Below, piece after piece: positions 11,321-61,499 of a stretch of DNA of 64,000 nt (positions are counted from its first letter, which is position 1; each line of letters begins with the position of its first letter). The notes under the pieces were generated by a model. It saw only the letters and a program-made list of their open reading frames with translations. It was not told where the DNA came from and searched no databases. The stretch is from the NCBI GenBank assembly GCA_015065785.1, contig SVPR01000005.1:62001-126000 (forward strand). Reading direction: 5' to 3'. The stretch is from Oscillospiraceae bacterium. GTDB lineage: Bacteria > Bacillota > Clostridia > Oscillospirales > Acutalibacteraceae. Both the position numbers and the translations under genes were made by a program.

Positions 11321-14300
11321 TTAAAACCTATTCCTGTTGTTTTGTTTTTTCATTTCAGCAAGAGAAAGCATTGCTTTACCATCAATATTAGGTTGAACAT
11401 TAGGTGCATTTTCATCTGTTAATACAATTTCCTTAACAGGTGCTTTCTCGTTTTCTGTTGGCTTCTGGCGTTTTCTCTTTCTTACAACCTTAACGCCGTA
11501 ACTGAATTCGCCATCATCCTCTTTTTCTTCTTCCGCATCTGAGAACACGAAATCCTCGTCATCCTCATTATCGTCATACAAATCAACATAAGAAAGTCTG
11601 CCGAAATCTGCAGGAGCAACCTCTTCCTCTTCTTCTCTGTCAGAGAATGGGATGTACTCCTCATAAACCTCGTATTCGCCATCATCACTTATGGTATATG
11701 TCACTCGTTCAGGTGGTGTAGCAGGTTTTTCTGCTTTTCTTTCCACTTTCGGTTCAGGCTTTACTTCAACAGGCTTTTCTGCCGGTTTTACGCCTTTTTT
11801 CGAGGATACCATCGGTGGAGGTGCCGGTCTTCTTGTAGCAGCTTCTGCTACAGCGCCTGCCACTGCTATATCAGCATTTGCACCTGTTCTAACTTGTGGC
11901 TTTGAAGCTCTTTTTGCTTCCTCCGCCTTGCGTGCCATTTCAGCTTTTCTTGCTTCTTCAAGACGACGAGCCTCTTCTGCCTGACGCTTAGCTTCTTCCA
12001 TCTTGCGCCTTGCTTCTTCTCTGAGTCTTGCCTCTTCAGCTCTGCGAGCCTCTTCAATGCGTCTTGCTTCCTCTTCAGCCTTTCTTCTTGCCTCTTCGGC
12101 TCTGCGAGCTTCCTCAAGGCGACGAGCTTCTTCAGCCTTTCTCGCTTCCTCCTGAAGTCTTGCTGCCTCGCGTCTTCTTGCTTCTTCGGCAATTCGTGCT
12201 TGTTCAGCCTTTCTTGCCTCTTCTGCCTTACGGGCTTCTTCAAGACGACGAGCTTCCTCTGCAATTCGAGCCTCTTCAAGACGGCGAGCCTCTTCGGCTT
12301 TTCTTATAAGCTCTGCTTTACGAGCTTCTTCTGCTCTGATTCTTTCTTCTTCAGCTCGTTTTCTTGCTTCCTCCTGAAGTCTTGCTTCTTCTGCTCTACG
12401 AGCTTCTTCAAGGCGACGAGCTTCTTCTGCTTTTCTCGCTTCTTCAAGGCGTCTTGCCTCTTCGGCAATTCTTGCTTCTTCTGCCTTTCTTGCTTCTTCT
12501 GCTAATCTTTTTTCTTCAGCAATTCTTGCAGCCTCTGCCTTTTTAGCTTCTGCCGCTAATCTTTTTTCTTCTGCAATTCTTGCAGCCTCTGCTTTTTTAG
12601 CTTCTGCCGCTAAGCGTCTTTCCTCAGCTTTTCTTTCAGCCTCTGCCTTTTTAGCCTCCGCAGCCAAACGACGCTCCTCAGCTCTTCGTGCCATTTCGGC
12701 TTTTCTTGCTTCCTCAGCTAAACGGCGTTCTTCCAATTTTCTTTCTTTTTCAGCCTGCTTTGCTGCCGCCGCTGCTTCCATTTCAGCTATTTGTTCAGGA
12801 GTATAAACCTTTTTAGGTCTTCCTCGACCGCGTTTAACTTCTTCCACTACTACTTCGGGAAGCGGATTTTTTCTTGGTCTGCCACGACCACGCTTAACTT
12901 CTTCTACCGGTGCTTCTGCAACAACCGCTGAAGCAACCTCACTTATTACAGGTGCAGCAGCTATAGCTTCCGGAAGAGGATTCTTTCTTGGTCTGCCACG
13001 GCCGCGTTTTACAGGCTCAGCAGGAATTTCTGCTACTGTCGGTTGTGCAACCGGTGTACTTGCAACAGAAGCAGGGGTAGCAGTAGCTTCAGGAAGCGGA
13101 TTCTTTCTTGGTCTGCCTCTACCGCGTTTTACAGGCTCAGCAGGAATTTCTGCTACTGCTGAAGCAACATCTGCTGTCGCTGAGAACTGACTTTCATAGC
13201 CTGAAGAAGCACTTTCATATAAAGCGCTATCAGAATATATATCCTCAGCACCGCTCTCAACATAAGAGTTACTTTCATTCTCCACGAACTCATTTATATT
13301 ATTTACTAACGGATTTTCATCACTATAGCTGTAAATCTCGTCATTTTCTTCAATTAAATCTTCAATATCATCTACCTGAGGTTCTTCCTCTTTAACAACA
13401 GGAGCCTCTTTTTCCACTATTTTCTCTTGTGGGCGTGAATTGATTAATGGTAAAGAATCGTCTGTACGACTTGGAATACCTGCATTAGTAGCAATGATTT
13501 CTTCCTCTTCGTAATCATCCTTAGCATCCGATGCATTCACCTCACCGTACTCGGCATTATCAGATTTAAAGCCTACACCGAGAGAAGCGAAAATATAAGA
13601 AACTACAAATATAAGACACGCAAAATCGCTGAAATTAAACGGACTACCCTCAACCGCATCTCTGCCAACAACAAACATTACTAATCTCGGAACAGTAATA
13701 AGTGCGGCAAAAATAGCTGCTGAAAGACCATAGCCGTAAATTCCCCACATACTGTCTTCTGTGAAAATGCCGGAAGTAATTCTTGCAAATGTCAAGAAGA
13801 AAAGCATAAGGAATACAAGCATAAATATTTCAAAGAGTAGCTCTGAAACGCTCATAAAGCTTATAGCGCTCATAAGCTTTGAAACAAGTCTTGTAATAGC
13901 CCAGCATAAAGGTGTAAGGGCTAAAATTTTATATTCTTTATAATGCCCTTTTCCTGTCAGATGAGAAACAGCGAATATTAAAAAATAAAGGAATGCCAGA
14001 AGTCCAAAAATGAATTGGAAAATTATAAATGCGCCACCGGCATTTGCTATATTGCTTTTTAACACCTCCATAAATGCTGTTATAGCACTGCGGGGAGGAA
14101 TAATCTGGAATAATACTGAAAAAACATCAACAAAAAATGCAACGCCTAATATTGATGAGGAAACGCCAAGAAGCATATTTTTACCCTCAGGCAATTTAGG
14201 TGACGGCACCTCTTTACTGATAAATGAAAGGATAATAAACGCACCGACAACTAACAAAAGTATTCCGGAAAGCAAATAAATAATTCCGTTGTCTTCAATA

Positions 14301-59848: not shown

Positions 59849-60050
59849 AATTAAGAATTAAGAATTAAAAATTAAAAATTTCGGAAGTCCTGCGGACTTG
59901 ATTATAAAATGAACAAAATTAATGCATCTTATCATTTATAGTTGATATTAAAACCAGCTTAAAATGATAAGATGCATTTCCTTTTATAATATTATAATTG
60001 CCGACCGCAGTCCCACAATTTTCAATTTTCAATTCTCAATTTTTAATTAT
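59849..60050. repeat. Nested palindromic repeat element, copy B (about 200 bp)
   Basis: (AATTAAR)n left, (CAATTYT)n right, each 7-bp period; 17-bp perfect stem 59921-59937/59962-59978; arms homologous to reverse complement of copy A. Confidence 0.9.
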
Positions 60051-60452
60051 AACAAAAGCGGATGCAAATTAGTGTTGTTCTTAACGAAGAATTTAAAAGT
60101 GTACTCATTTTCCGTTAAGAACCAGCATCGCATTTGTATGTACAAACGCACTTGGGCAGTAGCCCAAACCCACTAACAACAGAAAAGAGAAGACTCGTCA
60201 ATCTACAAATCTTCTCTTTCTTTTTGTCTGTTAAGTGATATGCTGACGGTCGTCAGCGTGATATTTTCGCCTTGCGAAAGTGATATGAAACCTATGGGCT
60301 TCGTGATATTCTATTCTCCATAAACTGTCCGCAGGACAATATCACTATGCGTAGCATAATATCACTGCGAAGCAATATCACTCGCCGTAGGCGAATAGAG
60401 TTGCGTGATACTCCGCTTGGAGTATCACGCTAACTGCATCCGCTTTTTGTTA
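60050..60452. repeat. Terminal-inverted-repeat composite element containing many hairpins
   Basis: TAACAAAAGCGGATGCAAATTAG (60050-60072) versus CTAACTGCATCCGCTTTTTGTTA (60430-60452). Confidence 0.8.
60235..60428. repeat. Array of short variable hairpins separated by GTGATAT / ATATCAC heptamers
   Basis: GTGATAT at 60235, 60258, 60280, 60303; ATATCAC at 60339, 60359, 60375; terminal palindrome GTGATACTCCGCTTGGAGTATCAC at 60405-60428. Confidence 0.9.
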
Positions 60453-61499
60453 TTTATTAGTTTTGTTAATTTGATAAATTACTTCTGAACCAATCTGGTC
60501 TAATGGGAGCTGACGGGTAATGCCGCCGATTTTATAAGCTTCCATTGGCATACCATAAACAACGCAGGTTTCTTTATCCTGACCAATGGTGTAAGCACCG
60601 GTGTCTTTAAGGAATTTAATGCCCTTAGCACCATCGGCACCCATACCTGTAAGAATAACACCCACTGCATTTTTACCTGCTGTTTTTGCAACTGAATCAA
60701 ACATTACATCAACTGACGGACAGTGTCCGCTGACTTTTTCACCGCGTTGGCTTCTGATGTAATAGCCTTTTGCATCTTCCTTTAATGTAAGATGGAATTC
60801 ACCTGCTGCAATAATAATCTGCCCAGGTACAACTCTGTCAAAATCTTCTGCTTCTTTAACACGCATTTTACAGATTTTGTCGAGTCTTTGTGCATAAAGG
60901 TCTGTAAATTTAGGTGGCATATGCTGAACAATAACAACGCCTGGTGTATTTGCAGGGAAGTCTTTAACAACCTCAATAATTGCTTCTGTACCGCCTGTTG
61001 AAGCACCGATAGCAATAACTGACTTGCTACCTGCTTTAACATTCATCATAGAAGCAAGTGCGCTGGTTGCCTGTGTTTTTTGTGCAACCTCAGCAACAGG
61101 TCTCATTCTTTTAACCTTTGCCTTAGAAGCAACCTTAACCTTTTCGGTTAATTCCAGGAAGAATTCCTTTATAGCCTCCTGACTTGCATCAGGCTTTTTA
61201 ACGAAATCAACAGCACCTGCATCAAGAGCATCAAGTGCATTTATAGGAAGTGAGCTCACAACAACAACAGGAATTGGTCTTTGCGGAATAAGTGTTTTTA
61301 AAAACTCAATTCCGTTCATACCCGGCATTTCAACATCAAGTGTTACAACATCGGGATTCAATTCCTCAATTTTACCCATTGCGTCTTTGGCATTAATTGC
61401 ACTGCCTACAACTTCAATTTCTTTATCCTGACTAAGTGACAGTTGTAATTTGGTTCTGAAAATAATAGAATCGTCAACAACAAGAACACGAATAGACAA
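60450..61499 (-). CDS. cheB: Chemotaxis response regulator protein-glutamate methylesterase CheB
   Basis: Receiver plus GASTGGTEAI; IVQHMPPKFTDLYAQRLD; VILTGMGADGAKG. Confidence 0.96.
   Translation of the reverse strand: MSIRVLVVDDSIIFRTKLQLSLSQDKEIEVVGSAINAKDAMGKIEELNPDVVTLDVEMPGMNGIEFLKTLIPQRPIPVVVVSSLPINALDALDAGAVDFVKKPDASQEAIKEFFLELTEKVKVASKAKVKRMRPVAEVAQKTQATSALASMMNVKAGSKSVIAIGASTGGTEAIIEVVKDFPANTPGVVIVQHMPPKFTDLYAQRLDKICKMRVKEAEDFDRVVPGQIIIAAGEFHLTLKEDAKGYYIRSQRGEKVSGHCPSVDVMFDSVAKTAGKNAVGVILTGMGADGAKGIKFLKDTGAYTIGQDKETCVVYGMPMEAYKIGGITRQLPLDQIGSEVIYQINKTNK

What the first reader, a model, noticed from the sequence alone, without database searches (positions are those of the whole stretch)
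60235..60428. Array of mutually different mini-hairpins separated by a constant GTGATAT/ATATCAC heptamer
Constant heptamers alternate with short palindromes of unrelated sequence: GCTGAC-ggtc-GTCAGC, TTTCGC-ctt-GCGAAA, GAAaCC-tatg-GGcTTC, then after an inversion point TGTCC-gca-GGACA, TATGC-gta-GCATA, TGC-gaa-GCA, TCGCC-gta-GGCGA, and a closing palindrome GTGATACTCC-gctt-GGAGTATCAC. Left units read GTGATAT+hairpin and right units read hairpin+ATATCAC, so the array is itself an inverted repeat. A repeat that is constant between variable spacers which are all self-complementary is not a CRISPR, REP/ERIC or standard terminator pattern known to me. It may be generated by a hairpin-templated process, serve as a substrate for a single-strand transposase, or form a structured RNA.
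Basis: seen in the sequence. Interest (0 to 1): 0.75.

Follow-up and report, generated by a model that had tools for sequence, protein, structure and literature searches.

The report
Hairpin-array mobile element inside a terminator
The odd row of small hairpins is the core of a roughly 360-base non-coding mobile DNA element, part of it already catalogued as the "Gut-1 RNA", which has spread through gut Clostridia by inserting itself into the loops of the hairpins that end transcription of genes.

Summary
The array is real and not chance: seven spacers keep 35 of 36 stem pairs, and the best of 100,000 shuffles reaches 25. One arm scores above threshold for Rfam Gut-1 RNA (RF01706). The other arm matches the same model on the opposite strand, below the curated threshold. 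Rfam has therefore modelled half of a two-armed element.

The whole element (about 60067-60434) lies in the loop of the cheB intrinsic terminator. A relative has that terminator empty; a second empty site is at rpsR in another genus. Of 36 related elements with both ends recognised, 34 lie between the two arms of a terminator stem, and the stems differ. The element is therefore mobile and targets terminator loops.

Between subfamilies the constant word changes together in both arms. Hairpin loops are C(GNA)G or C(GNNA)G on opposite strands in the two arms. That fits DNA mini-hairpins better than one folded RNA. Y1, IS110 and reverse-transcriptase enzymes are not consistently present in array-rich genomes, so the mobilising enzyme is unknown.

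New variant of a known kind (MITE/REP-like repeat) and a reinterpretation of a catalogued RNA.

The parts
60053..60066 (.). left arm of the cheB intrinsic-terminator stem (target site)
   Evidence: CAAAAGCGGATGCA, complementary to 60435-60448; empty ortholog AAAACGGATGCA-AAA-TGCATCCGTTTT in L079
60067..60434 (+). whole inserted element, about 368 bp; outer limits known to a few bases
   Evidence: homologous to L057 and L035 only over this stretch; flanks unrelated
60072..60091 (+). left end GTGTTGTTCTTAACGAAGAA
   Evidence: conserved left end, found in 17 of 18 genomes allowing 2 mismatches; alignments
60125..60171 (+). conserved left module GCATCGCATTTG..CAAACGC..GGGC..GCCC (two hairpins)
   Evidence: (10 of 16 genomes), alignment
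60181..60229 (+). AAGAGAAGA/TCTTCTCTT hairpin with T-rich tails
60235..60309 (+). left arm: GTGATAT x4 separated by hairpins GCTGAC-ggtc-GTCAGC, TTTCGC-ctt-GCGAAA, GAAACC-tatg-GGCTTC
   Evidence: Gut-1 model match on + strand, 45 bits, below gathering score 50
60310..60319 (+). 5' half of the long-range pair, TCTATTCTCC
   Evidence: family consensus TNTATTCGCC covaries with GGCGAATANA
60326..60394 (-). right arm: hairpins TGTCC-gca-GGACA, TATGC-gta-GCATA, TGC-gaa-GCA, TCGCC-gta-GGCGA separated by ATATCAC x3
60334..60403 (-). Rfam Gut-1 RNA (RF01706) match
   Evidence: 59.9 bits, gathering 50, E 2.2e-9
60390..60399 (+). 3' half of the long-range pair, GGCGAATAGA
60403..60430 (+). right-end hairpin GCGTGATACTCC-gctt-GGAGTATCACGC; resembles the left end in inverted orientation
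60435..60449 (.). right arm of the terminator stem, TGCATCCGCTTTTTG
60450..61499 (-). cheB-like gene (response regulator plus methylesterase) whose terminator carries the insertion
   Evidence: ORF; identity from its sequence and the neighbouring chemotaxis-like ORFs

Best explanation
The array is the core of a small non-coding mobile element of about 310-400 bp that inserts into the loop of intrinsic (Rho-independent) terminators; here it split the cheB terminator. SHOWN: dispersed copies, common ends, terminator-loop sites, two orthologous empty sites, two inverted arms, covariation of hairpins, of the constant word and of the long-range pair. INFERRED: it is moved in trans by an enzyme not yet identified. 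INFERRED: the constant word plus mini-hairpin units are repeated recognition sites that fold when DNA is single-stranded or cruciform; word and enzyme co-evolve, which changes all copies of the word together, while the hairpin sequence is free as long as it stays self-complementary. INFERRED: terminator loops are safe, gene-free targets and are themselves hairpins. Rfam's 'Gut-1 RNA' is one arm of this element.
For: 36 elements with both ends, 314-396 bp: 34 have a flanking stem score of at least 7 (swapped flanks 22%), 21 have at least 10 (swapped 0.6%), and 32 of the 34 have a T-run. Wider set: complementary flanks of 10 nt or more in 39% of 125 against 5.2% swapped. Empty sites: cheB in L079; rpsR in L370, with plain hairpin-terminator-like sequences after rpsR in the other listed relatives. 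Copies with unrelated flanks within one genome. Word changes in both arms: GTGATAT, GTGAAGT, TCGATAT, ATGATGT, GTGAAAT, TGAAAT and GCGATAT. Long-range pair: C:G 35, T:A 31, A:T 29, G:C 1 distinct hairpin sets, 2 exceptions. Loop polarity: GNA 88 against TNC 1, GNNA 72 against TNNC 0 in the ATATCAC orientation of each arm, so opposite strands in the two arms. GNRA to GNYA is 33:31, and most outer pairs do not fit cUNCGg. d(GCGAAGC)-type DNA hairpins with GNA or GNNA loops are exceptionally stable (PMC4686876).
Against: No autonomous copy and no enzyme were found. No clear target-site duplication was seen. A subclass next to tRNA or tmRNA genes has no left module and no paired flanks. G-T against A-C stem mismatches favour opposite strands in the two arms only modestly, 36 to 14 over both arms, and copies are related. 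RNA function was not tested. Most genomes are metagenome assemblies with copies at contig ends.
Confidence: 0.7

Rival explanations
1. Structured non-coding RNA, as in Rfam: the element encodes a Gut-1 RNA folded on one strand, and mobility is secondary or is how the gene spread.
For: Rfam match 59.9 bits; strong fold, z -6.5; Weinberg et al. 2010 scored Gut-1 as certainly an RNA (PMC2864571); the long-range pair covaries.
Against: Both arms match the same model on opposite strands. Loop type is fixed relative to the word, not to one strand. GNRA is not preferred over GNYA and cUNCGg is in the minority. No strand shows the expected G-U excess in both arms. Only one weak promoter-like match in the region, fewer than in shuffles.
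Confidence: 0.2
2. Hairpins are a mutational product: replication template switching in palindromes copies one arm over the other, so perfect stems drift in sequence without selection on structure.
For: Compensatory-only stem differences outnumber one-sided ones 134 to 47, many changing 2-5 pairs at once; few wobble pairs; the mechanism is documented (PMC8794818).
Against: Does not explain fixed loop type, the conserved word, element ends or terminator-loop sites. It can act together with the main explanation.
Confidence: 0.3
3. IS200/IS605- or RAYT-type Y1 transposase substrate (REP/BIME-like).
For: Hairpins with a conserved foot sequence resemble REPs; some array-bearing genomes have Y1 genes.
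Against: No Y1 domain in 4 of 10 array-bearing genomes, three of them rich in copies and at least 97% complete; no array cluster beside the Y1 genes found.
Confidence: 0.08
4. A terminator or attenuator module that evolved in place from duplicated terminator sequence, not a mobile element.
For: All sites are terminators, and the element contains further terminator-like hairpins.
Against: Near-identical elements with unrelated flanks; empty orthologous sites; conserved ends in many genera.
Confidence: 0.04

Closest known systems
Gut-1 RNA (Rfam RF01706; Weinberg et al. 2010, PMC2864571)
   Same: The right arm in the window is a member above gathering score; same word-hairpin-word pattern, with GTGAAAT as the consensus word.
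   Different: Rfam models one arm only, as a stand-alone RNA, listed as human gut only. Here it is half of a two-armed mobile element, found in many ruminant and deer gut Clostridia, with several other constant words.
REP/BIME repeats with RAYT (TnpA-REP) transposases
   Same: Extragenic hairpins with a conserved foot word, in alternating orientation.
   Different: Hairpins differ completely in sequence, the unit is a larger element with ends, it lies inside terminators, and Y1 enzymes are not consistently present.
BOX/RUP elements of pneumococcus and bacterial MITEs (PMC3049150, PMC10969869)
   Same: Small non-coding mobile elements, modular, predicted to fold, moved in trans.
   Different: Target is the loop of an intrinsic terminator; a two-armed hairpin array; no parent IS and no clear duplication known.
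ISPsy8 and ISRm22 (IS elements in REPs, PMC1525189)
   Same: Insert at the symmetry axis of a palindrome.
   Different: They carry a transposase and target REPs; this element is non-coding and targets terminators. The IS110-type Transposase_20 domain is absent from all 18 genomes tested.
Group IIC introns
   Same: Target intrinsic terminators (own knowledge).
   Different: They insert after the stem, not in the loop (own knowledge); reverse transcriptase is absent from 8 of 10 array-bearing genomes.

Membership tests
Gut-1 RNA (RF01706) | match to the covariance model above gathering score | tested here: met
   59.9 bits against 50
Gut-1 RNA (RF01706) | function as an expressed structured RNA | not testable with these tools
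   no RNA-seq; loop polarity and opposite-strand arms argue against it
MITE | short, non-coding, dispersed in several copies with common ends | tested here: met
   314-396 bp, multiple copies per genome; no ORF of 80 aa or more in the element
MITE | terminal inverted repeats | tested here: inconclusive
   left end resembles the inverted right-end hairpin (GCGTGTTGTTCTTAGCGGAG / GCGTGATACTCTTAACGGAG); clear in some subfamilies, weaker in others
MITE | target-site duplication | tested here: inconclusive
   no consistent duplication in 36 flanks, but the exact ends are uncertain by a few bases
MITE | empty sites | tested here: met
   cheB and rpsR
MITE | related autonomous element | tested here: inconclusive
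   none found among left-end matches or by Y1, IS110 and RVT searches; the search was not exhaustive
REP/RAYT | associated Y1 transposase gene | tested here: not met
   missing in 4 of 10 array-bearing genomes; none flanked by arrays
IS110/IS1111 derivative | IS110-type transposase in the genome | tested here: not met
   Transposase_20 (PF02371) in 0 of 18 genomes
Group II intron derivative | reverse transcriptase in the genome, insertion 3' of the stem | tested here: not met
   RVT_1 (PF00078) in 2 of 10 array-bearing genomes; insertion is in the loop
CRISPR | identical repeats with non-repetitive, non-palindromic spacers and cas genes | tested here: not met
   spacers are perfect hairpins and orientation inverts mid-array; cas genes were not searched

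The most novel reading that the evidence does not exclude
A new class of mobile element that is a programmed single-stranded-DNA fold: an array of exceptionally stable d(C-GNA-G) mini-hairpins and a co-evolving word, recognised by an unidentified recombinase that joins the element's end hairpin to terminator hairpins of the host.
Probability: 0.25. Interest if true: 0.85.

Novelty: new variant of a known kind. Interest (0 to 1): 0.62.

Why it matters
A family that Rfam has listed for years as a non-coding RNA is better read as half of a mobile DNA element. Its covariation would then report DNA-level hairpin upkeep, a warning for RNA discovery by covariation. Terminator-loop targeting is an unusual, harmless site choice, shown here by 34 of 36 sites and two empty sites; it makes the unknown mobilising enzyme and its hairpin recognition directly testable.

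Tried and rejected
Terminal inverted repeat AAAAGCGGATGCA taken as the element's own end: rejected, because it is the host terminator stem (empty site in L079) and differs in every copy. Simple nested pairing of all GTGATAT with ATATCAC: only weak register-specific covariation (L4:R1 7 of 7 when both deviate, otherwise little), so general pairing is not claimed. Y1, IS110 and RVT as mobiliser. No 'distant' match on plasmids; two faecal phage contigs carry array fragments. Scan of viral contigs failed twice, no answer. A generic scan of part of one genome (G238) gave only three arrays; its permuted-letter control was badly designed and was replaced by shuffled sequence, which gave 0 arrays.

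Full report
WHAT IS THERE. Seven spacers hold 35 of 36 possible stem pairs; the best of 100,000 within-spacer shuffles holds 25. GTGATAT-spacer-GTGATAT occurs five times against 0.01 expected. Folded as RNA the stretch has z = -6.5.

KNOWN NAME. cmscan gives one Rfam hit in the whole 64 kb window, Gut-1 RNA RF01706 at 60334-60403 minus, 59.9 bits, threshold 50. The left arm matches the same model on the plus strand at 45 bits, below threshold. In further loci many elements show two such hits on opposite strands. The Rfam consensus word is GTGAAAT, a variant of the one here. The only paper found that carries the accession is Weinberg et al. 2010, which lists Gut-1 as an RNA found in human gut only (PMC2864571).

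THE WHOLE ELEMENT. BLAST and alignment of the window with L057 and L035 show homology from about 60067 to 60434 and none outside. The element has a left end (GTGTTGTTCTTAACGAAGAA), a left module with three hairpins, the two-armed array, and a right-end hairpin GCGTGATACTCC-gctt-GGAGTATCACGC. Left and right ends resemble each other in inverted orientation.

THE SITE. Immediately outside lie AAAAGCGGATGCA and TGCATCCGCTTTTT, complementary to each other. In relative G001 the same place after cheB reads AAAACGGATGCA-AAA-TGCATCCGTTTT, an ordinary terminator without the element. At rpsR, genome G238 has AAAAGCTACCGCA-element-TGTAGCTATAGCTTTG, whereas relative G470 has AAAGCTACCGC-AAAA-GCGGTAGCTT; the other listed relatives also show ordinary hairpin-terminator-like sequences there. 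Across 36 elements with both ends recognised, 34 sit between complementary arms (stem score at least 7), against 22% for swapped flanks; at a score of at least 10 the figures are 21 of 36 against 0.6%; 32 of 34 are followed by a T-run. The two misses are L276, where a stem AGACGAGCTAA/TTAGCCTGTCT is visible by eye, and L241, where sequence is lacking. In a wider set of 125 the excess persists (39% against 5.2% at 10 nt).

DISTRIBUTION. Three copies in the window's own genome: C17 (window), C28 beside tRNA-Tyr, and C29 (L281). Arrays occur in 32 of 99 relatives (a few of those hits are simple repeats rather than hairpin arrays) and, by a different pattern, in 90 of 396 genomes of the order, up to 18 matches in one genome. 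In 300 genomes across the phylum the only convincing arrays are within the order. Named records are mostly Clostridia and Oscillospiraceae assemblies from ruminant and deer gut. A subclass lies directly after tRNA or tmRNA terminators; there the host terminator stands where the right-end hairpin would be and the left module is missing.

STRUCTURE AND ITS STRAND. (a) Between sister elements, compensatory-only stem changes outnumber one-sided changes 134 to 47. (b) TNTATTCGC and GCGAATANA covary (C:G 35, T:A 31, A:T 29, G:C 1 distinct hairpin sets, 2 exceptions). (c) The constant word changes as a set in both arms: GTGATAT, GTGAAGT, TCGATAT, ATGATGT, GTGAAAT, TGAAAT and GCGATAT. (d) Read in the ATATCAC orientation, loops are C(GNA)G or C(GNNA)G in both arms: 88 GNA to 1 TNC and 72 GNNA to 0 TNNC. 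In one transcript, one arm would then have GNA and the other UNC loops. GNRA is not preferred over GNYA (33:31), and only 19 of 78 C(TNC)G loops have the C-G pair needed for a cUNCGg tetraloop. d(GCGAAGC) and its GNA/GNNA relatives are exceptionally stable as DNA (PMC4686876); TGCGAAGCA at 60366-60374 contains d(GCGAAGC). (e) Stem mismatches lean to G-T on the ATATCAC strand of each arm, 36 to 14, again opposite strands. The argument mirrors one used by Weinberg et al. for STAXI, where UUCG loops were taken to favour RNA.

MECHANISM. Shown: dispersal, common ends, terminator-loop sites, empty sites, covariation. Inferred: mobilisation in trans by an enzyme that reads the word and the folded hairpins. 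That all copies of the word change together is better explained by shared recognition than by pairwise base pairing. Template switching in palindromes (PMC8794818) may keep stems perfect and is compatible with this. Candidate enzymes tested: Y1_Tnp is missing in 4 of 10 array-bearing genomes, Transposase_20 (IS110) in all 18 genomes searched, RVT_1 in 8 of 10. Array-bearing genomes of that set: G000, G238, G214, G203, G437, G119, G173, G201, G009, G007.

LIMITS. Most genomes are incomplete assemblies and copies often sit at contig ends. No transcription or mobility data exist here. Counts treat related copies as separate. The exact ends are uncertain by a few bases.

Noticed in passing
window 59849-60048: A second, AT-rich inverted-repeat element (AATTAAGAATTAAGAATTAAAAATT.../...AATTTTCAATTCTCAATTTTTAATT) in the same intergenic gap; a related stretch lies after cheB in relative G002 (L081).
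   Followed up: partly
L004, L038, L039, L049, L059, L344 (tRNA), L072 (tmRNA): Arrays without the left module directly after tRNA or tmRNA terminators, the host terminator standing in for the right-end hairpin.
   Followed up: partly
L257 1-700; L228 800-1600: Several arrays with different constant words lie close together (GTGAAGT beside TCGATAT; GTGAAAT, ATGATGT and GTGATAT).
   Followed up: no
L032, L036, L067 just left of the array: Sigma-70-like promoter (TTGCTT, 17 nt, TATAAT) pointing from the array into the left module in some subfamilies.
   Followed up: no
GenBank MT835815 5074-5168, MT835476 34081-34157: Array fragments on two unannotated faecal phage contigs.
   Followed up: no
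window 12026-12721: Long run of imperfect 18- to 168-base tandem repeats, probably a repetitive coding region.
   Followed up: no
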